Of a stretch of DNA of 35,925 nucleotides, positions 13,105 to 35,925 are shown one piece after another. This DNA is from Lachnospiraceae bacterium (lineage in GTDB: Bacteria; Bacillota; Clostridia; Lachnospirales; Lachnospiraceae): the NCBI GenBank assembly GCA_017548765.1, contig JAFYZH010000016.1:1-35925 (forward strand), read 5' to 3'. Every line of letters begins with the position of its first letter. Position 1 is the stretch's first letter. The position numbers and the translations under genes were made by a program. The notes under the pieces are model-generated. The model did not search any database. It saw only the letters and a list, made by a program, of their open reading frames with translations, and was not told the origin of the DNA.

Positions 13105-13884
13105 TCAGTCCGGCTTCACACCCAGGAGATGGTCGGACAGTTCCTTGCGTCCGATCTCCCCAAAATTCAGTTCCTTCTTCTCGAAGTCGAAAAGCAGCAG
13201 CCCCGCCGCGTTTCGCTCCAGCTCGTGCACCACGGCCCCCGAAGCGTCGATCACGCACGTCGGCGCCGTCTGGTATGGCGCTGTCGCATCCACCGTCAGG
13301 AACGGCGTCACATTTTCCACCGCCCGCGTGATCAGATGGCTGCGTATCATCTGATAGCGGCTTGTGTCGTCCGTGTCCGCCACATCATTGAACAGGACGA
13401 TATTCAGATCCGTCCGCGCGCGGTACAGCTCGCGGAAATACTCCGGAAAGCGCACCTCAAAGCAGATCCGGACGCCGATCTTATACTCTCCGATCGTGAA
13501 CACGCCGTCTTTATCGCCTTCGGTGAAATTATCGCGGTCCCAACCGTATAGCGCCCGTTTGTCATACCACGTCGCGGGCTCGCCAGGCACGAAGAAATAC
13601 GCCCGGTTACGGTACACCTCGTCAAAAGCGATGGTCCCGGCGAGGATGCGGATCTTATATGCATCGGCCAGCTCCTGCAGCCGCGGCAGCGCCTGCGTGA
13701 CTGCCGCCATGTCGACCGACTGGCTGTCCGGCAAGTCCCGCGGCGGATAGCCGGTCAATGCGCACTCCGGGAACACGATCAGCTCCGCCTGCGAGGCGGC
13801 GGCCTGACGGATCGCATTTTCCATCTCGACCATATTTCGCCGGATATTTCCGGTCACTCCAAACTGGTAAGCAGCGATCTTCAT
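13105..13884 (-). CDS. Carbon-nitrogen hydrolase (nitrilase superfamily)
   Basis: The protein has 259 residues and the Glu-Lys-Cys triad of the nitrilase superfamily: E40 in FPECALTGYPPRD, K109 in YDKRALYG and C141 in RICFEVRFPE. These enzymes hydrolyse amides, carbamoyl groups or ureides in the cytoplasm. The exact substrate is not readable. ATG 13884 has AAAGGA 9 bases upstream; earlier in-frame ATGs at 13908 and 13944 have none. It is first of the unit nitrilase-GH10-GH31-small protein. Its position beside the xylanase could be chance; an amidase acting on amide decorations is speculation. Confidence 0.87.
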   Translation of the reverse strand: MKIAAYQFGVTGNIRRNMVEMENAIRQAAASQAELIVFPECALTGYPPRDLPDSQSVDMAAVTQALPRLQELADAYKIRILAGTIAFDEVYRNRAYFFVPGEPATWYDKRALYGWDRDNFTEGDKDGVFTIGEYKIGVRICFEVRFPEYFRELYRARTDLNIVLFNDVADTDDTSRYQMIRSHLITRAVENVTPFLTVDATAPYQTAPTCVIDASGAVVHELERNAAGLLLFDFEKKELNFGEIGRKELSDHLLGVKPD

Positions 13885-13901
13885 ACGCTCGTTTCCTTTC
13901 G

Positions 13902-13915
13902 TGTACATGTTTACA
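13902..13915. promoter_or_regulatory. Possible LacI-type operator upstream of the nitrilase-xylanase unit
   Basis: TGTACATGTTTACA is an imperfect palindrome like the TGTAAAC-type half-sites of LacI-family operators. It lies between the sortase terminator and the nitrilase ribosome binding site. It is a weak match, given only because it precedes sugar hydrolase genes. Confidence 0.2.
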
Positions 13916-13923
13916 ACCGTGTA

Positions 13924-13961
13924 TTTAAAATCGTCGGTCCGCACGCTGTACGGACCGACGA
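13924..13961 (-). terminator. Intrinsic terminator after the sortase gene (end of pilus operon)
   Basis: Perfect 11-bp arms (13931-13941 and 13951-13961) around a 9-base loop, followed on the minus strand by TTTTAAAT. It separates the pilus operon from the nitrilase-GH10-GH31 unit. Confidence 0.82.
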
Positions 13962-13983
13962 ATTATTTATGTATTTGTGTTGA

Positions 13984-15423
13984 TCATTCTTCAGTTTCCT
14001 GCTTTACGGCCTCGCGGTCATCGCGATGGTAGCGGGTAAACAGAACGTCCGCTGTCCAGGTGCCGATCATCAGGATCAGCATGAGCGGTGTCCATTTATC
14101 GATAAGGATCATAGGCAGGCGCATATTCTCCGTAGCGATGAATGCGAGCAATGCCAGCAATGTGAGTACAGCCTCGATCGCGATACCGGTGTAGAACTTA
14201 CGAGCGAACGGCTCGACATCGTAGATCTTCTCGTTCTTCGCTTCGTTAACCTTACGCATCTTGCGGATGCGGCCGTACTTACGCTTCAGCATCGTCACAG
14301 GTGCCAGGATGTAGATCGTGACGAGCAGGCAGATCAGGTTGACAAACGCCCAGGCGTTCCGTCCGTAGGAGCTGCCACCCGGCATAAACAGATCGAAGAA
14401 ACCGCTGAAGATGGGCCAGCGTTCCTTAACGCCGGTTCCCGCCGCGCTCTCCGGGCTGACGGTGTAATCCGAGGTCGTAGGCTCTTCAGAAGAAGCCTCC
14501 GGTGTGGATCCTGCTTCGGTCGATGCTTCCTCCGTCGTCTCTGCCTCCGTTGAAGCTGCCGGTGTCGACTCTTCTTCAGTCGATGCTTCTTCGGTCGTCT
14601 CTTCTTCCGTTGACTCTTCCGGAGTCGACTCTTCAGAGGAGATCTCCTCCGTCGTCTCTTCCGTGGTCGGTTCGATCGGCGTGATCGACGGTTCCAATAC
14701 TCCGAAGAGTACCAAACGTCCATTCGTCACGGCGCCGGCGCAAGTGGAGAGGCAAATGATCTGCTTCGCTCCCTTTGCCGCATTCGCGTCCATGATCGTA
14801 GCATGTTGCGCTATATATTGAACCAGTTCATCCAGGTTCCGGTTTCCGACGGAATAGATCGCATTCTCGTAAGCATCGGTCTGAAGGACCGCAAAGAAAG
14901 TGATCTCATCGAGTCCGCCCGGGTAAGCCAATGTACCCTTTTGATGCTTGTAGAAAAACTCCTCATCGAGGAAGCGATCCAGATCGCCGAACATCGCACC
15001 ATTGTCCATGTGGTGACCGAAGATCACGATATACGCATCGCTCATATCCGGAGCATTATCGTATGCCATGTAGATGGCGCCGGTCAGGCTGGAGTTGCCA
15101 TCGATGTCATGGTTCGCATAGTAAAGGTCATTATCCGACTGCATGACCGGATAATCGATGTGTGTATCATCAACGCGAAGCCATGCACGGTAGTCCTCAC
15201 GGGACTGCGCAAGCTCATCCTGAACTTCATCCTTCAGGACGTCGTCGCCGAGGTCCAGGCCTCCCGAGGCAAATGCACGGTTTTGCGTATAGAGCTGCTC
15301 ATACAGGGAATAGCCACTGTACAGAACCAGTACTGAACCCAGCATGACAGAAGCAGCTACGAGGACACGGATACCGGTGACACTCAACAGATCGATCAGT
15401 TTGATTTTTCTTAAGAAACGCAC
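13984..15423 (-). CDS. Class B sortase with Thr/Glu stalk and multi-pass membrane tail
   Basis: The protein has 479 residues from a GTG start at 15423, chosen because AAAGGAGG ends 7 bases upstream. An in-frame ATG at 15441 lies before that site. Residues 16-38 are a membrane anchor. The sortase domain (about 60-245) has the catalytic His in GHHMDNG (136-142), Cys228 in CLSTCAG and Arg236 in TNGRLVLFG. The GHHMDNG..MF block is typical of class B. After it come about 75 residues of Glu/Thr/Ser repeats (250-325) and a tail with at least three membrane segments (about 358-378, 412-430, 440-460), absent from classical sortase B. The gene is third in the pilus cluster and probably polymerises or anchors the pilin through its ISPTG motif. 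Confidence 0.92.
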   Translation of the reverse strand: MRFLRKIKLIDLLSVTGIRVLVAASVMLGSVLVLYSGYSLYEQLYTQNRAFASGGLDLGDDVLKDEVQDELAQSREDYRAWLRVDDTHIDYPVMQSDNDLYYANHDIDGNSSLTGAIYMAYDNAPDMSDAYIVIFGHHMDNGAMFGDLDRFLDEEFFYKHQKGTLAYPGGLDEITFFAVLQTDAYENAIYSVGNRNLDELVQYIAQHATIMDANAAKGAKQIICLSTCAGAVTNGRLVLFGVLEPSITPIEPTTEETTEEISSEESTPEESTEEETTEEASTEEESTPAASTEAETTEEASTEAGSTPEASSEEPTTSDYTVSPESAAGTGVKERWPIFSGFFDLFMPGGSSYGRNAWAFVNLICLLVTIYILAPVTMLKRKYGRIRKMRKVNEAKNEKIYDVEPFARKFYTGIAIEAVLTLLALLAFIATENMRLPMILIDKWTPLMLILMIGTWTADVLFTRYHRDDREAVKQETEE

Positions 15424-15446
15424 CCGTCGTCCTCCTTTCATTCTTA

Positions 15447-16073
15447 CTACAGTTTACTTCTTCGGATCACGGTGATGACCGTTCCGAGGATCTCATCCTT
15501 CTTAACCGGTCCGAAATAGCGGCTGTCCATGCCATCCTTTCGGCCGTCCACGAGGATGAAGTATTCATCGACCCCCAGCACCAAGGGGTAGTTTACTCTC
15601 TCGCCGCGTTTCGGCGTATCGTAGAAGATCATCGGCTCGGAAATCGAGCGCCCGTTTACGACGGGACGATTTCCCATGTTGATGTCTACCGAGTCACCCG
15701 GTACCGCGATCACACGGCCGACAAACATCTGTTTCTTACCTTCATCGACTTCCTTCTCAAAAACGACCAGCTCCTGGAAAGCGGGGCTGCGGTCCAGTCG
15801 ATAGAAGATCAAAAGGTCACCCGCATCTACACGAGGCGACATATCCTCATTCGGCATATGCGTGATCCCGATGATCTTGAAAAACAGGATCCATATCAGG
15901 AACAGGAATACGCCGAGGTAGATCAAAAACCAATGGTAACTCTTCAGGCCTTTTTCGTCCTGATCCAGTTCCTTCATCAGTTCGTCCCGGTCGGGCTCGG
16001 CCTCCTTCGCGATCTTCGGATCGACTGTCTTATCCTTTAAGACAGGCTTTATTTTCTTTTGTTTCGTAGCCAT
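15447..16073 (-). CDS. Signal-peptidase-I-like protein lacking the Ser/Lys dyad (SipA-like pilus factor)
   Basis: The protein has 208 residues, with a long charged cytoplasmic N-terminus (1-45), one membrane segment (47-66) and an extracellular S26 domain. The position of the catalytic Ser (canonical G-x-S-M-x-P) reads E76-D77-M78-S79-P80, so Asp replaces Ser. The position of the catalytic Lys (canonical K-R-V-I-G-x-P-G-D) reads G119-R120-V-I-A-V-P-G-D, so Gly replaces Lys. Other boxes, such as DSRYFG (183-188), are kept, so the fold should be intact. From memory, S. pyogenes SipA has the same Ser-to-Asp and Lys-to-Gly changes and is needed to polymerise FctA pilin. Placement between a Spy0128-like pilin and a class B sortase supports the same role here. 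Confidence 0.88.
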   Translation of the reverse strand: MATKQKKIKPVLKDKTVDPKIAKEAEPDRDELMKELDQDEKGLKSYHWFLIYLGVFLFLIWILFFKIIGITHMPNEDMSPRVDAGDLLIFYRLDRSPAFQELVVFEKEVDEGKKQMFVGRVIAVPGDSVDINMGNRPVVNGRSISEPMIFYDTPKRGERVNYPLVLGVDEYFILVDGRKDGMDSRYFGPVKKDEILGTVITVIRRSKL

Positions 16074-16100
16074 CGTCGACCCTCACATCCAATTAAGGTA

Positions 16101-16143
16101 AAAGACCCGACAGCTGTATAGGATATATAGCCGTCGGATCTTT
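16101..16143 (-). terminator. Hairpin between pilin and sipA-like genes, partial terminator
   Basis: Arms 16101-16115 and 16129-16143 give a 15-bp minus-strand stem with two G-U pairs and a 13-base loop, followed by UUUUACC. It lies 44 bases after the pilin stop. The same operon seems to continue, so it may reduce read-through and keep pilin mRNA more abundant than sipA-sortase mRNA. No separate promoter was seen after it. Confidence 0.7.
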
Positions 16144-16187
16144 ATGTGCCCCGACTATCCGTGGGACTGTTTATCATTCGCGTGAGA

Positions 16188-17501
16188 TCACGCGTTTTTC
16201 TTCTTTGTGCTGTTAACGGCTTTTCTTCCAAGAACGATCAACAGGATGCCGCCTACCAACAGGAGAACATACGGAGCGAACCGTGTGATAAATCCGGTCG
16301 GGGAAATGGTATCCAACGTATTCGTCAGATCGATCGTCGTGGTGGAAGACATGGTCAGAGCAGTAAATGTACCGGTTGTGGCGCTCGCTGCAACGATAGC
16401 CTCTGCGAGAGGTGTCGAAGCTGTCGAACCAACGGTAGCCTCAGCCTTCACCTTGTAGGAGTCGGGTGTATTGTTCGTCTCAACAAGGGAAACGGTCGCG
16501 CCCTCCGGAACACCGATGAAGGAAATGGAACTTCCGTTATCTACGGTACCACTCAAATCGCCTGCACAAGCTGCAAGCGTTACATAGGTACCGATCGCAT
16601 CGGACGATGTACCAGCCAGCGTAGCATCATCAACAAGCGTAACATCTACGGGAATATTTGCCATGCCGTCTGCGGGAGCAGTAAATGTAATAGTCAACGG
16701 GAAGTCGTTGTTCTTATCTGCCATCAGACCGGTGGTCGTCTTGTTGATCGTCACGTTCTGTGTGCGATATACGTCAACGTTTGTATATTCTTTGTTAGCC
16801 GTATTGGACGTATTTACATAACCGGAAGACTTCTTCGCAATGTTGGTCTGGCTTGTCGTTCCGTCAAAAGAGATCGTAGCATCGTCCGACTCAAACAAAA
16901 CGTAGCCATAGATCACAGGAGTATCATCCGTCTCCGAGGTCTTCTTAACATATACGTCCAGATAACGAGTATCGTTGTAAGTAGCCATTGCATCGATGCC
17001 AACAGTTGCTTTGGTAGCATTGGCCTCTACGATCTTGTAACGATAGATGCCCGGACCCGGGAACTTGGTTCCTGCGAGGTCGAATGTGAAATCCGCATAA
17101 CGGGTCTGGGTAACACCGGCTTCCGAAGTCGCAGACGTAGCCGTGCTGGCAAATGTGATCGTTGCAGTCTTCGTAGTGATCGCATCTGCAACGCCGCTCT
17201 TTACCGGACTGGACATGCCGTCGGAGTCCTTAACGGTAGCTGTCGCCGCCGACATATCTACTGCAGACAGAGTGTACGTATACGTGGTGTTCGGCTCACG
17301 CACAGCGGTAGCTGCATCATTGATGAAGATCAAATCCTTACGGATGCTGACTGTATTATTCGTATCCGTTACCGTAACCGTAGGCGCAGGAACTCCGCCA
17401 CCTGCAGTAGTACCCGCAGCGGAAACGATCGATGCACGGGCAAATGCAAAGATCAGCATCAACATAAGAACTAAGTTAATACCCTGAAGTCTTTTCTTCA
17501 T
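16188..17501 (-). CDS. FctA/Spy0128-type major pilin with sortase sorting signal
   Basis: The protein has 437 residues. A signal peptide (1-28, cleavage near VSA/AG) is followed by two isopeptide-type domains (about 50-245 and 246-395). In Spy0128-like pilins, a Lys in the first strand, a Glu in the middle and an Asn in the last strand form an internal isopeptide bond. Here the second domain offers K254 (TINKTT), E341 (SLVETN) and N394 (DLTNTL). The first offers K55 (IRKD) and E159 (YKIVEA); its Asn cannot be placed by eye. The sorting signal is ISPTG (399-403), then a hydrophobic stretch (411-425) and a basic tail. GGAGGAA is 8 bases before the ATG. Thr and Ala are abundant and there is one Cys at 312. 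Confidence 0.9.
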   Translation of the reverse strand: MKKRLQGINLVLMLMLIFAFARASIVSAAGTTAGGGVPAPTVTVTDTNNTVSIRKDLIFINDAATAVREPNTTYTYTLSAVDMSAATATVKDSDGMSSPVKSGVADAITTKTATITFASTATSATSEAGVTQTRYADFTFDLAGTKFPGPGIYRYKIVEANATKATVGIDAMATYNDTRYLDVYVKKTSETDDTPVIYGYVLFESDDATISFDGTTSQTNIAKKSSGYVNTSNTANKEYTNVDVYRTQNVTINKTTTGLMADKNNDFPLTITFTAPADGMANIPVDVTLVDDATLAGTSSDAIGTYVTLAACAGDLSGTVDNGSSISFIGVPEGATVSLVETNNTPDSYKVKAEATVGSTASTPLAEAIVAASATTGTFTALTMSSTTTIDLTNTLDTISPTGFITRFAPYVLLLVGGILLIVLGRKAVNSTKKKNA

Positions 17502-17602
17502 AAATTCTCTTCCTCCATTCGAGTTTATTACTCAAAACAACATCCTTTTATATCTCTTCCCTCTCCGCATAGTCACAATTGGAGAGAATCAGTCGCATAA
17601 TC

Positions 17603-17631
17603 ATTATAGCACGGTTTTTTCGGGATTTCCA
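17603..17631 (-). promoter_or_regulatory. Promoter of the pilus operon
   Basis: On the minus strand a perfect TATAAT (17603-17608) follows TGGAAA (17626-17631, 4/6) at 17 bases. The leader to the pilin ATG is about 95 bases. Confidence 0.65.
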
Positions 17632-17688
17632 CCCATAATATCGAAAATTATGTGAATTTTTATGAATTTTTTACCGATTTTCACCGAT

Positions 17689-19092
17689 TTAACCCTCGGT
17701 TGCCTGTTTTCGGCCGGAAAATCGCTCTTCATCCGAAGCAGATTTCACCCTCTTGATCCATTTTCCGCTACGCAGACGCAGGATGCACCAGAACGCTTTT
17801 ATCACCTGATCGATCTTCAGCAGGAAGTAGATCCAGAATGCATCCAGTTCCCAGACCAGACCGGCCGCCGCGCCTAAAGGAACCGAAGCGACCCACAAGA
17901 ACAGGATGTCGGCGACCATCAGGAATTTTGTGTCGCCTCCTCCGCGGAGCACGCCCTTCGTCATAATGCTGTTGATCGACTGGAATACTACGATGATCGC
18001 GATGGAGTTCATCAACTGCGCGGCGAGGGTCTTCGTCTCCTCTTCAACATTGTACATGCCGATGATGAACGGGCTTGCGATCAGTATGATGACCGCACCG
18101 ACCAGACCGACGATGGTGCCGAGCGCGTAGAACGTGACCGCCTGCTCCTGGGCTTCTTTTACCTTACCCTCACCCAAGGTGTGGCCCGTGATGATGCAGC
18201 CCGCCTGGCAGATGCCTTGGATCAGCACGGTACTGAGTTGCTGTGTAACGACGGTGATGGAATTTGCCGCGACGAAGCTTCCGCCGATCTGGCCCATGAT
18301 CATCGCAACGATGCTGTTTCCGACCGCCAGAAGGGTATCCGAGATCAGAACAGGGATACTGATGCGGATGTACTCCGGCACCATGTTCTTACACTTCATG
18401 AACAGATCGCGGACGCGATATCCGATGCGCTTATCCACGAAAAATACATATCCGCAGATCAATGTAAACTCGAATACGCGGGCGATCAATGTGCCGAGGC
18501 CGGCACCGGCCACGCCCATCTCGGGAGCGCCGAATTTACCGAAAATGAACATGTAGTTGAAGAACACGTTCACGAAAAACGCGCCGATCGACACCAATAG
18601 CGGAACCAGCGTCTGCCCTGTAGTTCGCAGGACGATGGTGCTCGTCAGCGAGAGACCCAGGAGGATGTAGCAAGGCACCATGTATACAAAATAGCGTGTA
18701 GCCACATCGATGATCTCGGGCTCTTTGATGTAAAGCCGCAGGATCCCTCTCGGGAAGAAAATGGATGCCAGTGTGAAGAGACCCGCCAAAAGAATGGTCA
18801 ATCGCAACATGATGGTGACCGCTTTCTTCAGCGATTTGTTATCTTTCATGCCCCAGTAGCGCGACGTGAGCACACTCGCGCCCATACCGAGACCCATACA
18901 GCAGATCTGGAAAATGCTTACAAACTGGTTGGACTGCGCTACCGCGGTCAGCGGCGCATCGCCGGGCAGTGCCCCGACCATGACCGTATCCGCCAGGTTT
19001 ATACCGATGGTGATCATACTCTGCCCCGCGATGGGGAGAGCGATCAATGCCGTCTTCTTATAGAATTCAGGGTTTTTTACAAATATCCTCAT
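17689..19092 (-). CDS. MATE family multidrug/Na+ antiporter
   Basis: The protein has 467 residues with about twelve hydrophobic helices in two halves, the size and layout of MATE efflux pumps. Family blocks include IALPIAGQSMITIGINLADTVMVG near the N-terminus, GMGASVLTSRYWG, and QGICQAGCIITGHTLGEG in the second half. Substrates are usually cationic drugs or metabolites exchanged for Na+ or H+; the exact one is unknown. ATG 19092 was chosen because GGAGG lies 10 bases upstream and the first helix starts 20 residues later. A start at 19212 would add 40 residues from the promoter region. The gene is divergent from the beta-galactosidase and is a single-gene unit. Confidence 0.92.
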   Translation of the reverse strand: MRIFVKNPEFYKKTALIALPIAGQSMITIGINLADTVMVGALPGDAPLTAVAQSNQFVSIFQICCMGLGMGASVLTSRYWGMKDNKSLKKAVTIMLRLTILLAGLFTLASIFFPRGILRLYIKEPEIIDVATRYFVYMVPCYILLGLSLTSTIVLRTTGQTLVPLLVSIGAFFVNVFFNYMFIFGKFGAPEMGVAGAGLGTLIARVFEFTLICGYVFFVDKRIGYRVRDLFMKCKNMVPEYIRISIPVLISDTLLAVGNSIVAMIMGQIGGSFVAANSITVVTQQLSTVLIQGICQAGCIITGHTLGEGKVKEAQEQAVTFYALGTIVGLVGAVIILIASPFIIGMYNVEEETKTLAAQLMNSIAIIVVFQSINSIMTKGVLRGGGDTKFLMVADILFLWVASVPLGAAAGLVWELDAFWIYFLLKIDQVIKAFWCILRLRSGKWIKRVKSASDEERFSGRKQATEG

Positions 19093-27016: not shown

Positions 27017-28891
27017 TCAGTTGATGTGGTTTACCAGGCCAATGAAGATCGGAAGCCCGTAGTTTGTTTCATAGATCACGTAAACAAACGGTCTGTCAAA
27101 ATCGATGCTATCGCTGTAGCCGCCGGTTTGCGTCGATCCCGCCGCGATCCGGGTGCCTCTTTCGTTTAACTCGATGCTCGTCTTATGGATCGCGCGAGTA
27201 ATGCACAGGGGCTGATCTCCGGTCATATTCGAAAAGTCCGCCCGTTCCAGATCAAATGCGTCCTTTATCCCCAACGCTTTCAGCGGATCCGCGAGGTCAT
27301 ATTCAGCCGAATAATTAAATTTCGGCATATAAATTTCTATGTAAGGCTCTTCCTGAGGCCCCCATTCTTTCCAAGCCTGGAACAGTTTTCTCAGTTTCTC
27401 AGCGTCAAGTCTTCTCAGCAGATCCTCTGCGCTCTCACCCCGATCCGACAGAAATGCTCCAAATGTAAACGGAGTATTTCCAAAGGATTTCATCACTCCT
27501 GTCGGGTACCTGTCCGAGTCCGAAACATATAGGTCGATGTCCGCAAAACCGCACATCATCTCCACGTCTTCTATATTACCCTTACTATCCGTGAATTCTC
27601 TGATCCGCGTAGCCCCGGGATTAAACGGCTGAAGCCACTGGGCATCAAAAGCCAGCGTATTCAGCAAGACGATCACGTCACCATCCTCAAAACGATCCAG
27701 CATATTGGGGATCATACCGAAGGTCTTCGATCTGCACCAGTTGTTGACATCCTCCAGGCCCTGCGCGTCAAACGGGGTCGAATAGATGCCGGCATCCAGC
27801 GTATTAATGCTCTTTCGCAGGAAATCTTCCCGGATCTGTTCTTCTATGCCCGAACCCTCATTGAGCCAGATCGAATTAGCAAATGTGAGTGTATCTGCAA
27901 CTTTATCGCCACAATATGCATACCAGCTCTGAAGGCCCTTATTGATCTCCTCTATGTTGACGTTCTCGCCGAGTGCTGCTTCCATCTGGGCCAATGTATC
28001 ATTGGCCGCTCCGTTTGCAGCCATGGATATGCTCGTCATAACGGAAAGCGGCGATATCAGAAGGTTGCTTCCCTCTTCAGCCTGATCCAACATCACGTTC
28101 GTCAGTTTCTCGGAAAATGCCATGTATTCGGCAACGAATTCCTCTGAAACGACATCTGACGCCGTAGATGCGTCTTTCAGTCCCTCGGTCAAATTCTTTG
28201 CAGAGATCGCATCGTCAAGCCCGGTTGCTTTTTGAGGGTTCAGAAAGCGCTCCATGGCCTCCGCAGTCAAAATGCCATCCTGTGTGAAATTGAAAGGAAT
28301 GATCCCCTCACAAATGGAAGAGGTACGTGGAGCTTCAAAATGAAATACCGCGTATCCTCTCTCGGTACGGATGATGAGATAGGTATCAGGATCGGACTTA
28401 TATACCTGAATACCGGCCTCGCCGTCCTGTCCCACTTCCGGTATACCGAAAGTTTCGATCACCTCACTATAGACGAGGCTTTGCACGCTGATCAATCGAT
28501 CCACCTTCCATGGATCTCCCGAACCGACTGTGGCATCCGCCACGATCTCAACAAACGAGCCCACATTAGGCCAACGGATGTCACCGTTTATTCTCCAATC
28601 TTCCACTATGATCGGGCACCATGGATCCACAACATAATGCTCAGTATATGACTTGCAAAAGATCGTAAACTTAGCTTTTTCGACCTTCACCGGGCCGGTC
28701 TCGGCCGGTGTCGTTTCGACTTTTGTGGTTTCGACAGGTGTTGTTTCCGGCAGTGTTGCTTCCTGTGTCGTTGCTTCTACACTTTGTGAAAGTGTAGAGT
28801 CTCCGGCTTCCGTCGAAGGTACATCCTTAGACGGCGAACAACTCGCCAGCGAAAGCAACAACATAAGCGCTAACGAACTGTATTTTTTCAT
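27017..28891 (-). CDS. Serpin-family protease inhibitor, lipoprotein
   Basis: The protein has 624 residues from ATG 28891 (GGAGGAG upstream; a TTG four codons earlier falls at the ribosome binding site). The lipobox LASC puts the lipidated Cys at residue 18. A Thr/Glu/Pro stalk (20-68) and an unrecognised domain (72-220) precede the serpin domain (about 250-624). Serpin marks are NLLISPLSVMTSISMAANGA (276-295), NSIWLNEG, and the C-terminal DRPFVYVIYE (599-608). The reactive centre loop runs about 577-598. Its hinge E577-R-G-T-R-I-A-A-G keeps Gly P15 and Thr P14 but has Arg at P13 and Ile at P12, so inhibition is likely but not certain. Gut Firmicute serpins (siropins) are known. It lies 17 bases after the HD-GYP gene. 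Confidence 0.9.
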   Translation of the reverse strand: MKKYSSLALMLLLSLASCSPSKDVPSTEAGDSTLSQSVEATTQEATLPETTPVETTKVETTPAETGPVKVEKAKFTIFCKSYTEHYVVDPWCPIIVEDWRINGDIRWPNVGSFVEIVADATVGSGDPWKVDRLISVQSLVYSEVIETFGIPEVGQDGEAGIQVYKSDPDTYLIIRTERGYAVFHFEAPRTSSICEGIIPFNFTQDGILTAEAMERFLNPQKATGLDDAISAKNLTEGLKDASTASDVVSEEFVAEYMAFSEKLTNVMLDQAEEGSNLLISPLSVMTSISMAANGAANDTLAQMEAALGENVNIEEINKGLQSWYAYCGDKVADTLTFANSIWLNEGSGIEEQIREDFLRKSINTLDAGIYSTPFDAQGLEDVNNWCRSKTFGMIPNMLDRFEDGDVIVLLNTLAFDAQWLQPFNPGATRIREFTDSKGNIEDVEMMCGFADIDLYVSDSDRYPTGVMKSFGNTPFTFGAFLSDRGESAEDLLRRLDAEKLRKLFQAWKEWGPQEEPYIEIYMPKFNYSAEYDLADPLKALGIKDAFDLERADFSNMTGDQPLCITRAIHKTSIELNERGTRIAAGSTQTGGYSDSIDFDRPFVYVIYETNYGLPIFIGLVNHIN

Positions 28892-28908
28892 AATCTCCTC
28901 CAAAATGG

Positions 28909-31374: not shown

Positions 31375-34300
31375 CTATGGCTGTAAAGAGAACTTCAATT
31401 CACCCTTTTGTGAAATACTAGTAGAATCCCATGGAGTAACATTAACCTTCTGCAATCGTGAAGCAGCTTCAAACGCTGCTTCAGAACCTGTAACTGCTTC
31501 TCCCTTAGCCCCATAACGCATAGAAACATTCGTACAATCCCACTGTTTAAGATCTCCACCCGGTATATTAAACAACGTATCCTTTGTAGGATCTGAATTA
31601 TGCACCAATATCGTGAAGTGAATGCCGTAATCAACCCGTACTAATTTATACTTTAGATCCTTATAATTCGACGGATCAGTTCCAGGTTTCATATATTCTG
31701 ATACATCCAATGCTGGTTCATCAATATACTCAACCCGCTTGATGTTTTCTACACTCTTTGAAAGCCAATCAACCATCGTTCGTTGAGACTCGGCCGATTT
31801 ACCGACTGCAGGTTTATTATTTAAATCCGCAAATATATCAAAAATACTCTTTCCTTTTCTTAAATATCCAATAAACTTAACTATATTACTCACATACGGG
31901 ATATCAAGCTTAGAAACAACTGTCATGGCGGTCTCAAGACTTGCTTTACCAATTCCGATAGCGTTTTTCCAAAAAGTGTCTTTGCTTATGTTAATGTATT
32001 GTTCCACTTCTTTGAGTTTCTTTTGCATTTCATCCATAGTCAAAATCATGGATATGTCATCCGGGCATAAATACACCTCCCAAATTGAACAATTGTCAGG
32101 CGCCGGAAATGAACTCAATGCATAGGGGTTAACTTTCCACACCATAGATGTATGTCCATCCAGAGTGTACGAATATTGATCCGAAACAAAACTCAATTTT
32201 ACATATTTGGGCTCATCAGCATTGTTATAGATATATAGATCATTGCTTGAAACCTGCGCATTCGGTGCACTTCCATCCGGAAGCAAATGAATATATCCAT
32301 CTAATTCGCCATCCGCAAACGGAGCTGTTATATCGTAACCGTTAACCATGATAGTAAAATCCGGATTAGAATATTCGGACTTATACAATCCCGTACTAGA
32401 AGCAGGAACAGTTGCCGGTTTTACAAAGGGTATATACACATATGTCTTGGGCAATACCCATGCTTCATACTTAAAGGTTTTTCCGCTGTCTGTCGATGTG
32501 ATCCTATCTGACCGCCACTGCGCAAACAGTCTAATGGTCTCATTATTCTGCGCATCAAAGCCTTTCTTAAGTATCTGTCCTGCAGTGTAACACGTTCCGG
32601 TACCGTCTGACTTCGTATTCCAAAGGACGAATTCACTGTTCGACTTCTCGAACGTATTCGCTTCTATCACCACTTCCTTGCCGCCCTTCATAGCTACCGT
32701 TTTGAGTGTCGGCGTCCCATTGTTCGGATAGTAAACGATGGAATACTTGTTCTGACTCCATATTGCATACAAAACTATGGTTTCGCCATTTGTGGACGAA
32801 AGGTTCTTTACTGGTTGCTCATCCCGGTAGGTCGCTGTAGTAGCTTTTTTATCTGTCGACCATCCCATGAAAGTATAACCGGTACGCTTGAACGCATTTT
32901 GGGTGAGCGCCGTACTTTCACCGTAAACATGCTGCTGGATGCTCATTAAGCCTGAGCCGCCGTTTGAGTCAAATCTCACCTTATACACAGGAGCCACCTC
33001 CCAGATCGCGTACAGAGTGACGATCGCCTTGTCTGTTGCGGTAACTCTGGATACAAACTGACCATCGGAGTATTTCTTCACGAGCGGGTCCTTTGTAAGG
33101 CTCCAACCGGCAAAATAATAACCTTTTTTCTTAAACGTATTCACGCGGATGCTTTCCGACACATCGTAAGTCATGGGCTGGTCTGCCATGGTTCCGGTGC
33201 CGCCGTTTGAGTTGAATCTTAATGTGTAGGTAGTCGAATCCTTCCAAACAGCAAACAGTTCAACAACAGCGCCTTCTTGCTTGATGACCGAAGAAACTAC
33301 CTGCTCATCAACATAGTCGGCTTTGGTTCCGTTTCTGGTTTTAGACCATCCGACAAATACCTTCCCAAAGTATTTAAACTGGTTCTTTTGGATCTTCTGA
33401 GGAACACCCCATACAAAATATTCCTGCTCCATGTAACCTGTGCCGCCCATGGGGTTAAAGATCAATGAATAGGTCGGATTTCGATGCCAAACCGCATAAA
33501 GCGTCACTACCTGTCCCTGACGCGGTGCCAGTGTTGCAACCGCCTGCTCATCTTTTAAATCAATTGTTGTGGAGCCCTTTGTACGCGTCCAGCCGGCAAA
33601 TGTGTAGCCGGTCTTCGTAAAGGTATTCAAGCTCAGCTTCTTCGACGTTCCGTAGACCATAACCTGATCATCCATGTTGCCTACGCCGCCGCTCGGGTCA
33701 AACTGAACCGTGTAGGTATTCCCTTTCCACTGAGCCGTAGCCACGACTTGACCGCCGGTGCAGAGATTCTTTACCCTATCGCCTGCTTTGTAGACCGTTC
33801 CGTTGATCTTCCATCCCGCAAAGCTGTAACCGGTGCGGGTGAAAGAACACGCGGGCAATGTCACCGTCGCGCTGTACATTGTACTGATATTAGCCTGCGT
33901 TCCGGTTCCGCCGTTTTCTTCAAAAACGATCGTGTAGGGATTTCCCTTCCACTGAGCGATTGCCACAACCTGCTCGTCGGTGCAGAGATTCTTCACCTTT
34001 TCGCCTGCTTTATAGACCTTGCTACCGATCTTCCATCCGGCAAAGCTACAGCCGGTGCGTGTGAACGAGCATGCGGGCAATGTCACCGTCTCGCCGTACG
34101 TAGTATTGACAGAAGACTGCTTTCCGGTTCCGCCATTTGCTGCAAAGACGATCGTGTAAGGATTGCCCTTCCACTGAGCCGTAGCCACGACTTGACCGCC
34201 GGTGCAGAGATTCTTTACCTTATCGCCTGCTTTGTAGACCGTTCCGTTGATCTTCCATCCCGCAAAGCTGTAGCCTGTGCGGGCGAACGAACAAACGGGC

Positions 34301-35925
34301 AATGTAACCGTCGCGCCGTACGTTGTACTGATATTAGCCTGCGTTCCGGTTCCGCCGTTTTCTTCAAAGACGATCGTGTAACTGTTCGCCTTCCACTGCG
34401 CGGTAAATGTTAATGTCGCTCCGTTCGTTGAAGTAAGGTTCTTTACGGAAGCTCCGTTTGCGTATGTCTTTCCGTTCCATTTCCATCCGGTAAACGAACT
34501 TCCGGTGTAGCTGAACGCGCATTTCGGCAGCGCTTTGGTCTCATCGTACTTCAACGTAATGCTCGACATCGTACCGGTTCCGCCATTTGCCGCAAAGGCG
34601 ATCGTGTAGGTGATCGGTGTCCACTGCGCCGTAGCCACGACTTGGCCGCCGGTGCAGAGATTCTTTACCTTATCGCCTGCTTTGTAGACCGTTCCGTTGA
34701 TCTTCCATCCCGCAAAGGTGTAGCCCGTGCGTGCGAACGAACATGCGGGCAATGTAACCGTCGCGCCGTAAGTTGTACTGATAGAAGCCTGCGTTCCGGT
34801 TCCGCCGTTATCTTCAAAGACGATCGTGTAGCTGTTCGCCTTCCACTGCGCGGTAAAGGTAATCGTTGCTCCGTTTGTAGATGTAAGGTTCTTTACGGAA
34901 GCTCCGTTTGCATATGTCTTATCATTCCATTTCCATGCGGTAAATGAGCTCCCGGCTTTGCTGAACGAACATTTCGGAAGTGTTTTCGTCTCATTGTACT
35001 TCACCGTAATGTTCGACATCGTACCGGTTCCGCCGTTTGCCGCAAAGGCGATCGTGTAGGTGATCGGTGTCCACTGCGCCGTAGCCACGACCTGGCCGCC
35101 GGTGCAGAGATTCTTTACCTTATCGCCTGCTTTGTAGACCGTATCGTTGATCTTCCATCCCGCAAAGGTGTACCCCGTGCGTGCGAACGAACATGCGGGC
35201 AATGTCACTGTTGCGCCGTATGTTGTACTGATATTAGCCTGCGTTCCGGTTCCACCGTTTTCTTCAAAGACGATCGTGTAACTGTTCGCCTTCCACTGCG
35301 CGGTAAACGTTAATGTCGCTCCGTTCGTAGAGGTAAGGTTCTTTACGGAAGCTCCGTTTGCGTATGTCTTATCATTCCATTTCCAGTTTGCAAACGTACT
35401 CCCGGCTTTGCTGAACGAACATTTCGGAAGCGCTTTTGTTTCATCATATTTGACGGTAAGTTTGGACATCGATCCGGTTCCGCCATTTGCTGCAAAGACG
35501 ATCGTGTAGGTGATCGGTGTCCACTGCGCCGTTGCAGTGATTTTGCCGCTTGTTGCGAGATCCTTGACTTTATCTCCTGCTTTATAGACCTTGCTGCCGA
35601 TCTTCCATCCCGCAAAGGTGTAGCCGGTGCGTGTGTACGAGCATGCAGGCAATGTCACCGTCGTACCGTATGTTGTACTGATAGAAGCCTGCGTTCCGGT
35701 TCCGCCGTTTGCTGCAAAGGTGATGGTGTAAGGATTGCCCTTCCACTGAGCCGTAGCCACGACTTGACCGCCGGTGCAGAGATTCTTTACCTTGTCGCCT
35801 GCTTTGTAGACCGTTCCGTTGATCTTCCATCCCGAAAAGCTGTAGCCTGAACGTGCGAACGAACATGCGGGCAATGTAACCGTCGCGCCGTATGTTGTAT
35901 TGATGGGAGACTGTGTTCCGGTTCC
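31375..35925 (-). CDS. Giant InlB-repeat (Listeria-Bacteroides repeat) secreted protein, partial (N-terminus outside window)
   Basis: The frame is open to the right edge, so at least 1516 residues are present without the start. At least fourteen complete repeats of 74-80 residues and one partial repeat occupy about 32505-35925, then a unique C-terminal region of about 370 residues. Each repeat has the family pattern NGGTGT, then TGYTFAGW and ending AQW. The repeats nearest the N-terminus alternate in two types. The last five diverge and look like the classic Listeria-Bacteroides repeat (FDSNGGSG, GYTFMGWS, LYAIW). The C-terminal region has an amphipathic helical part and no LPXTG or membrane segment. 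The family is found in adhesins and internalins; here the ligand is unknown. Confidence 0.9.
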   Translation of the reverse strand, partial: GTGTQSPINTTYGATVTLPACSFARSGYSFSGWKINGTVYKAGDKVKNLCTGGQVVATAQWKGNPYTITFAANGGTGTQASISTTYGTTVTLPACSYTRTGYTFAGWKIGSKVYKAGDKVKDLATSGKITATAQWTPITYTIVFAANGGTGSMSKLTVKYDETKALPKCSFSKAGSTFANWKWNDKTYANGASVKNLTSTNGATLTFTAQWKANSYTIVFEENGGTGTQANISTTYGATVTLPACSFARTGYTFAGWKINDTVYKAGDKVKNLCTGGQVVATAQWTPITYTIAFAANGGTGTMSNITVKYNETKTLPKCSFSKAGSSFTAWKWNDKTYANGASVKNLTSTNGATITFTAQWKANSYTIVFEDNGGTGTQASISTTYGATVTLPACSFARTGYTFAGWKINGTVYKAGDKVKNLCTGGQVVATAQWTPITYTIAFAANGGTGTMSSITLKYDETKALPKCAFSYTGSSFTGWKWNGKTYANGASVKNLTSTNGATLTFTAQWKANSYTIVFEENGGTGTQANISTTYGATVTLPVCSFARTGYSFAGWKINGTVYKAGDKVKNLCTGGQVVATAQWKGNPYTIVFAANGGTGKQSSVNTTYGETVTLPACSFTRTGCSFAGWKIGSKVYKAGEKVKNLCTDEQVVAIAQWKGNPYTIVFEENGGTGTQANISTMYSATVTLPACSFTRTGYSFAGWKINGTVYKAGDRVKNLCTGGQVVATAQWKGNTYTVQFDPSGGVGNMDDQVMVYGTSKKLSLNTFTKTGYTFAGWTRTKGSTTIDLKDEQAVATLAPRQGQVVTLYAVWHRNPTYSLIFNPMGGTGYMEQEYFVWGVPQKIQKNQFKYFGKVFVGWSKTRNGTKADYVDEQVVSSVIKQEGAVVELFAVWKDSTTYTLRFNSNGGTGTMADQPMTYDVSESIRVNTFKKKGYYFAGWSLTKDPLVKKYSDGQFVSRVTATDKAIVTLYAIWEVAPVYKVRFDSNGGSGLMSIQQHVYGESTALTQNAFKRTGYTFMGWSTDKKATTATYRDEQPVKNLSSTNGETIVLYAIWSQNKYSIVYYPNNGTPTLKTVAMKGGKEVVIEANTFEKSNSEFVLWNTKSDGTGTCYTAGQILKKGFDAQNNETIRLFAQWRSDRITSTDSGKTFKYEAWVLPKTYVYIPFVKPATVPASSTGLYKSEYSNPDFTIMVNGYDITAPFADGELDGYIHLLPDGSAPNAQVSSNDLYIYNNADEPKYVKLSFVSDQYSYTLDGHTSMVWKVNPYALSSFPAPDNCSIWEVYLCPDDISMILTMDEMQKKLKEVEQYINISKDTFWKNAIGIGKASLETAMTVVSKLDIPYVSNIVKFIGYLRKGKSIFDIFADLNNKPAVGKSAESQRTMVDWLSKSVENIKRVEYIDEPALDVSEYMKPGTDPSNYKDLKYKLVRVDYGIHFTILVHNSDPTKDTLFNIPGGDLKQWDCTNVSMRYGAKGEAVTGSEAAFEAASRLQKVNVTPWDSTSISQKGELKFSLQP
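34384..35733 (-). repeat. Three tandem 450-bp units within the giant repeat gene
   Basis: Units 34384-34833, 34834-35283 and 35284-35733 each encode one 74-residue A repeat and one 76-residue B repeat. The same CTGTTCGCCTTCCACTGCGC word recurs at exactly 450-base spacing. The A type ends QWTPI and has LPACSF; the B type ends QWKAN and has LPKCSF. Confidence 0.85.

What the first reader, a model, noticed from the sequence alone, without database searches (positions are those of the whole stretch)
15447..17501. SipA-like pseudo-signal-peptidase next to a Spy0128-type pilin and class B sortase
The signal-peptidase fold is kept but the catalytic Ser is Asp77 and the catalytic Lys is Gly119, seen directly in the sequence. 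The same double change is known to me for S. pyogenes SipA, which is needed for pilus polymerisation. With the pilin (ISPTG signal) and a class B sortase this is a minimal three-gene pilus system, in a probable gut Clostridium rather than a Streptococcus. It may define a wider SipA family.
Basis: partly seen in the sequence, partly recalled or inferred. Interest (0 to 1): 0.75.

Follow-up and report, generated by a model that had tools for sequence, protein, structure and literature searches.

The report
Enzyme-dead pilus assembly helper
A bacterium related to rumen Lachnospiraceae carries a surface-fibre operon whose middle gene is a signal-peptide-cutting enzyme that has lost its cutting site and very likely helps to build the fibre instead; relatives without the cutting site sit with the same kind of fibre genes in many clostridia.

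Summary
ORF 15447-16073(-) has a signal-peptidase fold with Asp77 and Gly119 in place of the catalytic Ser and Lys, as in Streptococcus pyogenes SipA (4n31), its best match by sequence and fold. It lies between a Spy0128-type pilin and a class B sortase in one operon-like unit. A wider SipA family exists. Among the 75 hits that I classified, 56 lack the dyad (21 different residue pairs) and 18 have it. A class B-type sortase lies within 4.5 kb of 55 of the 56 and of 0 of the 18 (one at 4.9 kb). Reciprocally, the 14 best sortase hits of a class sample all lie beside SipA; 39 fetched lower-scoring loci do not, though one lower hit does. No Ser-Lys row falls inside the clostridial group on the trees; whether S. 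pyogenes SipA shares its origin is unresolved. The old active site has drifted, but all 56 end in Arg-x3-[Ile/Leu/Phe], as does 4n31. One genome has two pilus clusters without sipA and one SipA gene far away, so SipA probably acts in trans. Best reading: a non-enzymatic SipA-type assembly factor. A new member of a known kind; the breadth of the family and the C-terminal signature are the new parts.

The parts
17603..17631 (-). promoter-like site TGGAAA-17-TATAAT with TG before the second hexamer
   Evidence: best-scoring (10 of 12) of 6 sites in 13700-18000 (3.6 expected by shuffling); consensus match only
16188..17501 (-). major pilin, 437 aa, Spy0128 (FctA) type: signal peptide, two domains each with a Lys/Glu/Asn set (K55/E159/N230; K254/E341/N394), ISPTG sorting signal; K223/K224 are candidate acceptor lysines
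   Evidence: sequence match to T18.1 pilin 7.9e-12; AlphaFold model pLDDT 79.9, best folds Spy0128 3gld E 7e-18 and 3b2m; conservation over 39 pilins
16101..16143 (-). hairpin with U-rich 3' side between pilin and sipA, possibly a partial terminator
   Evidence: 86 nt folded: MFE -35.4 against -20.62 +/- 3.1 kcal/mol in 200 shuffles, z -4.77
15447..16073 (-). SipA-like pseudo-signal-peptidase, 208 aa, one N-terminal helix (29-67) that holds the membrane stretch
   Evidence: Peptidase_S26 1.3e-20; 4n31 SipA best in sequence and fold; model pLDDT 88.6
15843..15845 (-). Asp77 codon at the catalytic Ser position
15717..15719 (-). Gly119 codon at the catalytic Lys position
15450..15464 (-). C-terminal signature RRSKL (R204 to L208): Arg exactly 4 residues before the end, last residue Ile/Leu/Phe
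   Evidence: 56 of 56 family members, window included; 4n31 ends RVRGI
13984..15441 (-). class B sortase, 485 aa (perhaps starting at GTG 15423, 7 bases behind AAAGGAGG), with H143/C234/R242, a Ser/Thr/Glu-rich linker and a C-terminal FILTED domain
   Evidence: TIGR03064 5.3e-41 (below cut-off) and NF052597 FILTED 3.6e-16; best PDB sequence 3psq 9.3e-31, which is Spy0129 (PMC3019223, passage); catalytic triad invariant in 25 sortases
13931..13961 (-). intrinsic-terminator-like site behind the sortase gene, 14-pair stem
   Evidence: longest stem of 12 sites (3.7 expected by shuffling)

Best explanation
The gene encodes a SipA-type protein: a membrane-anchored signal-peptidase fold that no longer cuts and is needed, as a non-enzymatic helper, for a class B sortase to polymerise the neighbouring two-domain pilin. 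Shown here: the (predicted) fold, loss of the dyad, linkage to pilus-type class B sortases, drift of the old active site in the clostridial family, and a fixed C-terminal signature Arg-x3-[Ile/Leu/Phe]-COOH. Inferred: that it is required for polymerisation in this organism (from published S. pyogenes / L. lactis experiments on SipA), and that it works by holding the pilin, near its sorting signal and membrane stretch, in reach of the sortase, using the cleft and the membrane-side C-terminal strand and tail rather than the dead active site. It probably acts in trans on pilin and sortase.
For: Best match 4n31 SipA by sequence (2.6e-15 single; 1.1e-45 with the family profile, against 1.5e-19 for the best true signal peptidase) and by fold (E 3.1e-12, TM 0.88 and 0.90 by target length for its two chains). 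The neighbours match the S. pyogenes pilus counterparts best: Spy0129 (3psq) for the sortase, T18.1 and Spy0128 pilins for the pilin. Of 56 relatives without Ser-Lys, 54 have a class B-type sortase within 4.5 kb on the same strand and 1 on the other strand; of 18 with Ser-Lys, 0. None of 53 Ser-Lys hits in the genome-search loci (mostly 1.5 kb flanks; some genes twice) has one. Reciprocal: the 14 sortase hits of 200 bits or more (13 genomes) in a 391-genome class sample all lie in SipA clusters; 39 fetched lower-scoring loci hold no SipA. With the two catalytic columns removed no Ser-Lys row falls in the non-dyad group (SH-aLRT 95; Ser site at least 21 changes, Lys site at least 13). C-terminal signature 56 of 56 against 0 of 56 Ser-Lys proteins in full. 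One genome has two pilus clusters without sipA and one SipA far away. Literature: deleting sipA abolishes polymerisation, while D61A, D61S and D61A/K98A do not (PMC4049620, passages and Discussion).
Against: No experiment on this protein. The binding step is unproven: in S. pyogenes, pull-downs found no SipA-pilin or SipA-sortase contact, and a cleft mutation (V99R) had no effect. The tree does not settle a common origin with S. pyogenes SipA: AU tests do not reject placing 4n31 with the true signal peptidases (p 0.18 on the set; p 0.636 on the larger set, where that tree even has a log-likelihood 7.73 higher than the free quick tree). Eleven of 56 members keep the Ser. One intact Ser-Lys copy lies in a pilus cluster, 4.9 kb from the sortase (L133). 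The 200-bit line in the reverse test was drawn after seeing the hits, and one hit below it (G644, 176.5 bits) does lie beside a SipA (L129).
Confidence: 0.87

Rival explanations
1. A pilus-dedicated signal peptidase that still cuts, with another nucleophile (Ser79, Asp77) or another base.
For: The signal-peptidase fold is kept; all 56 members match the NCBIfam signal peptidase I model at E 0.001 or better; an intact Ser-Lys copy sits in one pilus cluster (L133); PMC4049620 notes S. suis and S. agalactiae homologues with an apparently intact dyad.
Against: Ser79 is Ser in only 10 of 56 and no Lys column exceeds 33 of 56; columns 175 and 181, invariant or nearly so in Ser-Lys proteins, are relaxed too; 21 different residue pairs occur; S. 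pyogenes SipA shows no detectable peptidase activity.
Confidence: 0.04
2. A decaying duplicate of a housekeeping signal peptidase with no function, kept by linkage.
For: The active site is lost and variable.
Confidence: 0.02
3. The three genes anchor a single surface protein rather than build a pilus: the sortase attaches the pilin-like protein to the wall, with SipA as helper.
For: No basal pilin gene in the operon; the sortase has an added C-terminal FILTED domain in this subclade; fibres were not demonstrated here.
Against: The predicted pilin fold matches Spy0128 best, with two Lys/Glu/Asn sets and Lys residues at -7/-6 where Spy0128 has its acceptor Lys161 relative to Asn168; the best PDB sequence match of the sortase is the polymerising Spy0129.
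Confidence: 0.12

Closest known systems
Streptococcus pyogenes SipA/LepA (PDB 4n31, 4k8w)
   Same: fold, Asp/Gly at the two catalytic sites, C-terminal R-x3-[I/L], gene beside a two-domain pilin and a class B sortase
   Different: 31-32% identical over the fold alignment with 4n31; gene order pilin-sipA-sortase here, cpa-sipA-fctA-srtC-fctB in S. pyogenes (PMC4049620, passage)
Clostridium perfringens VR-10B (NE pilus) locus, class B sortase plus 'signal peptidase' (PMC8088525, passages)
   Same: clostridial pilus locus with a class B sortase and a signal-peptidase gene; pili seen by electron microscopy there
   Different: three pilins in the locus; the passages seen call the gene a signal peptidase; its active-site residues were not examined here
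Spy0128 (FctA) major pilin and Spy0129 class B pilus sortase
   Same: fold of the pilin; class and catalytic triad of the sortase
   Different: ISPTG instead of EVPTG/QVPTG; [quoted passage not shown]
Type I signal peptidase (SpsB, LepB)
   Same: S26 fold
   Different: Ser-Lys dyad absent here; different C-terminal end

Membership tests
SipA (pilus-associated signal-peptidase-like protein) | S26 signal-peptidase fold with one N-terminal membrane anchor | tested here: met
   Pfam match and predicted model
SipA (pilus-associated signal-peptidase-like protein) | catalytic Ser and Lys absent | tested here: met
   Asp77 and Gly119
SipA (pilus-associated signal-peptidase-like protein) | gene in a pilus operon with a class B sortase | tested here: met
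SipA (pilus-associated signal-peptidase-like protein) | C-terminal R-x3-[ILF] end (signature proposed here) | tested here: met
   RRSKL; 56 of 56 and 4n31
SipA (pilus-associated signal-peptidase-like protein) | common ancestry with S. pyogenes SipA to the exclusion of true signal peptidases | tested here: inconclusive
   4n31 nested in the tree, but AU tests do not reject the alternative: p 0.18 and p 0.636
SipA (pilus-associated signal-peptidase-like protein) | required for pilin polymerisation | not testable with these tools
   needs deletion and blots
Type I signal peptidase (active) | Ser-Lys dyad | tested here: not met
Spy0128-type major pilin | two domains with Lys, Asn and assisting Glu for internal isopeptide bonds | tested here: met
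   residues present and kept in 32 to 39 of 39, fold match; distances and bond formation not tested
Class B pilus sortase (Spy0129 type) | class B sortase core with His/Cys/Arg | tested here: met
   (below the model's curated cut-off)
Class B pilus sortase (Spy0129 type) | polymerises the pilin | not testable with these tools
   needs enzyme assay or deletion

The most novel reading that the evidence does not exclude
SipA is the signature subunit of a whole class of class-B-sortase pili spread through Clostridia: a pilus-dedicated signal peptidase lost catalysis long ago, its active site has drifted since, and its working part is now the membrane-side C-terminal end (invariant Arg at -5, hydrophobic last residue), which docks sortase or pilin and acts in trans, so that one SipA can serve several pili.
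Probability: 0.4. Interest if true: 0.7.

Novelty: new member of a known kind. Interest (0 to 1): 0.5.

Why it matters
What SipA does is an open question in the S. pyogenes literature; mutating the old active site did nothing (PMC4049620; PMC7900414, passages). The family seen here gives the question a handle: the active site is the part that drifts, and a few positions, above all Arg204 and the exact C-terminal length, are the parts that do not. It also points to likely misnaming: all 56 members match NCBIfam's 'signal peptidase I' equivalog model at E 0.001 or better. And it suggests pili of one common type in many Lachnospiraceae and other Clostridia.

Tried and rejected
Rejected: Ser79 or a shifted Lys as a family-wide active site. 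Rejected: sequencing error or frameshift (8 relatives agree). Considered and not adopted: a defence role (no PADLOC match at E 0.01). The in-frame stops that the genome search flagged in G138, G178 and G088 were not pursued as pseudogenes; for G178 a later search gives an open frame of 188 aa without stops. The VIA-align library was not available. Model coordinates were not in the Python box, so distances within the models (Lys/Glu/Asn sets, place of Arg204) were not measured.

Sampling limits. The 60 stretches were picked from the hit lists, not all of them. From, G013, G223:C45, G036:C27, G155 and G085 were seen only with 1.5 kb flanks (all Ser-Lys); nine further G149 copies, G154, G179, G120:C10, G275, G152 and G026 were not classified; most low hits were seen only with 1.5 kb flanks or not at all. 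One hit (L145 at 3455, 47 bits) had no residue in the Ser column and was dropped from the table; rows under 60 bits were dropped from the tree and, among added rows, under 50 bits from that. 'Class B-type' means a hit to a profile started from the window's own sortase; the nearest hits to non-dyad genes score 124 to 237 bits. Sortase profile A5 was built from 25 sortases in SipA clusters, some of them from the class sample later searched with it, so only part of the 14 hits is independent; G494 (L172) was new. The 39 fetched lower loci are next-ranked hits (plus one own-genome hit), not all lower hits, and several are cut by contig ends (such as L184, L193, L195, L202, L203, L209). L004-L007 were left out of the conservation count. 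One search counts own-genome and some genus genes twice.

Full report
The observation. The window holds three genes on the minus strand in the order pilin (17501..16188), SipA-like protein (16073..15447), sortase (15441..13984). Codons 77 and 119 of the middle gene are GAT and GGC. In the alignment with S. pyogenes SipA, 4n31, Asp77 stands over the Asp of DMSP and Gly119 over the Gly of VGR; the SipA paper names these as the residues that replace the catalytic Ser and Lys (PMC4049620: outline, passages, the Discussion and the cleft section seen). Eight relatives in named genome records (six titled Lachnospiraceae, one Clostridiales, one Firmicutes; four titles name rumen) carry Asp (7) or Gly (1) at the Ser site and Gly (6), Ser (1) or Cys (1) at the Lys site. 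The genome's own signal peptidases, on contigs C104 (two) and C22, keep Ser and Lys.

The operon. A promoter-like site lies at 17631-17603 and a 14-pair terminator-like hairpin at 13961-13931 (consensus matches only). Between pilin and sipA a hairpin with a U-rich 3' side folds at -35.4 kcal/mol against -20.62 +/- 3.1 in shuffles. I read it as a partial terminator that would give more pilin than machinery; that is inference. Five bases separate sipA from the ATG of the sortase frame; a GTG at 15423 behind AAAGGAGG is the more likely start.

The neighbours. The pilin's best sequence match in the PDB is the T18.1 backbone pilin (7.9e-12). Its model (pLDDT 79.9) matches Spy0128 best (3gld, 7e-18), then other T pilins and PitB of pilus islet 2. 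Over 39 pilins taken from beside SipA genes, domain 1 keeps K55 (35), E159 (35) and N230 (32), domain 2 keeps K254 (35), E341 (38) and N394 (39). Lys residues lie 7 and 6 positions before N230; in Spy0128 the acceptor Lys161 (PMC3019223, passages) lies 7 before Asn168 (number from the 3gle entry title). Of the 32 pilins with Asn there, 23 have a Lys 5 to 8 before it. The sortase matches TIGR03064 (5.3e-41, below its curated cut-off) and best in the PDB 3psq, which is Spy0129 (PMC3019223, passage); His, Cys and Arg are invariant in 25 cluster sortases. Its C-terminal FILTED domain (NCBIfam NF052597) was found in the window and 11 other loci (L004-L011, L100, L101, L104) of the 69 sources scanned with a profile of it; these 12 form one branch of the SipA tree (100/97).

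The wider family. A profile of nine SipA-like proteins was searched in 299 family, 391 class, 398 phylum and 6 genus genomes (some genomes occur in more than one sample); the genus has it in 6 of 6, five of which appear to be the sources of L004-L008. Sixty stretches around hits were fetched. With the window and L004-L011 these are 69 sources with 75 hits: 56 lack the dyad, 18 have it, 1 is unclear. The 56 show 21 different residue pairs, Asp/Gly being the commonest (21 of 56). A class B-type sortase lies within 4.5 kb on the same strand in 54 of 56, on the other strand in 1 (L155), and is absent in 1 (L108); for Ser-Lys hits it is 0 of 18. One Ser-Lys copy (L133 at 8539) lies 4.9 kb from a sortase, inside a pilus cluster that also has a Ser/Arg copy, just beyond the distance limit. 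In the loci as first fetched (mostly 1.5 kb flanks), 0 of 53 Ser-Lys hits and 30 of 48 non-dyad hits have a sortase in the locus; some genes count twice, and L004-L011 have longer flanks.

The reverse test. A sortase profile from 25 clusters was run on the class sample. The 14 hits of 200 bits or more, in 13 genomes, all lie in SipA clusters. Forty stretches around other hits were fetched: L172 is one of the 14, and the other 39, among them one from the window's own genome, hold no SipA-like protein. The 200-bit line was drawn after the fact: one hit below it, G644 at 176.5 bits, does lie beside a SipA (L129), while G332 at 179.5 does not (L173). L172 was missed by the SipA search at 1e-20; by eye its SipA has Phe and Ala at the two sites, and it ends FRWRSF. 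Some cluster sortases of this sample were in the profile, so the 14 are not all independent.

The tree. With 57 non-dyad rows (56 and 4n31) and 18 Ser-Lys rows (17 and 4nv4), the non-dyad rows are one side of a branch (93/92; 94% of 200 bootstrap trees). With 57 Ser-Lys rows and the two catalytic columns removed the split stays (SH-aLRT 95), and the Ser site needs at least 21 changes, the Lys site at least 13. Against one common loss with streptococci: 4n31 entered as a fragment on a long branch, and AU tests do not reject 4n31 on the Ser-Lys side. On the set that tree has a log-likelihood 10.35 lower, p 0.18; on the larger set it is 7.73 higher than the free quick tree, p 0.636. So the trees keep the clostridial group free of Ser-Lys rows, but do not settle where S. 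pyogenes SipA belongs; its profile score and C-terminal end speak for kinship. The nearest rows outside the group are the intact copy L133_8539 and L159_4482 (90/67), which would fit an origin from a pilus-linked active peptidase; that is a suggestion only.

What is kept and what is not. Compared column by column (53 non-dyad and 57 Ser-Lys rows), the dyad sites and columns 175 and 181 are relaxed. Those two columns are equivalent to Gly272 and Ser278 of E. coli SPase I by the motif GDN..S.DSR (motif numbering recalled); PMC4049620 reports both changed in SipA. P80, D86, R120, D176, D183, R185 and R204 are invariant in the family. T153 and P163 are firmer than in true peptidases. Arg204 stands exactly four residues before the end in 56 of 56; the last residue is Ile 23, Leu 20, Phe 13. 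Of 56 Ser-Lys proteins 3 have Arg in that column and 1 has it in that register (L133_8539, ending in Asn). 4n31 and 4k8w end RVRGI. In the model this end follows the last strand, 195-203, which in S. pyogenes SipA belongs to the sheet whose counterpart in E. [quoted passage not shown]

Action in trans. The one SipA without a sortase nearby (L108, genome G178, ending RRSSL) led to a further check. G178 has two pilus-type sortases, 247 and 235 bits, each beside a pilin and without SipA in about 6 kb on either side, about 1.06 and 0.88 Mb from the SipA gene; its two other S26 hits at E 1e-5 have, by eye, Ser and Lys. So one SipA appears to serve two pili, as expected of a helper that acts in trans.

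Mechanism. Steps shown in the literature for S. pyogenes: SipA is needed for polymerisation; the Asp at the Ser site and the nearby Lys are not; no cleavage or binding was detected (PMC4049620). That paper already proposes that SipA holds the pilin in a conformation fit for the sortase. Steps shown here: the same protein kind, gene company and C-terminal end. Inferred: SipA holds the pilin's membrane-near part for the sortase, using its cleft and C-terminal side. I put 0.87 on a non-enzymatic SipA-type assembly factor; the docking detail is much less sure.

Known and new. SipA itself, its dead site and its link with class B sortases are known in streptococci (PMC4049620; PMC7900414, passages), and a clostridial locus with a class B sortase and a 'signal peptidase' is known in C. 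perfringens (PMC8088525, passages). My searches of the open-access library listed no paper whose title or abstract start, as shown, treats SipA across Lachnospiraceae, and a search with words for a C-terminal motif or invariant arginine gave none. Only listings and the passages named were seen; most subscription papers and all bioRxiv preprints are outside that library.

Noticed in passing
L108, L224, L225 (genome G178): Two pilus clusters without sipA and a single SipA gene about 0.9-1.1 Mb away; a natural case that suggests action in trans.
   Followed up: yes
window 13984-15441, C-terminal part of the sortase: Sortase fused to a FILTED domain in 12 loci that form one SipA subclade; many other clusters have a separate small protein with a PKTG/PQTG-type signal behind the sortase (L104 seems to have both).
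   Followed up: partly
L133:8539-9120 (-), genome G826: Intact Ser-Lys signal peptidase inside a pilus cluster that also holds a Ser/Arg SipA; has Arg at -5 but ends in Asn. Possible relic of the ancestral state.
   Followed up: partly
own genome C32, locus L212: 2252-aa open frame with VAPTG sorting signal, likely tip adhesin of this pilus, unlinked here but near the operon in relatives L007 and L011.
   Followed up: partly
all 56 members of alignment A3: All match the NCBIfam equivalog model for signal peptidase I at E 0.001 or better, so automatic annotation may well call these dead proteins enzymes.
   Followed up: partly
window 31375-35874 (-): Long ORF with many tandem FxGW-type repeats (Listeria-Bacteroides repeat look, name recalled), possible further surface protein.
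   Followed up: no
window 27017-28903 (-): Lipoprotein-like ORF that looks like a serpin (recalled, not searched).
   Followed up: no
own genome C9 (L163) and C102 (L161): Two sortase-like ORFs, nearly identical by eye over the shared part and cut by contig ends, perhaps one gene split or duplicated in assembly.
   Followed up: no
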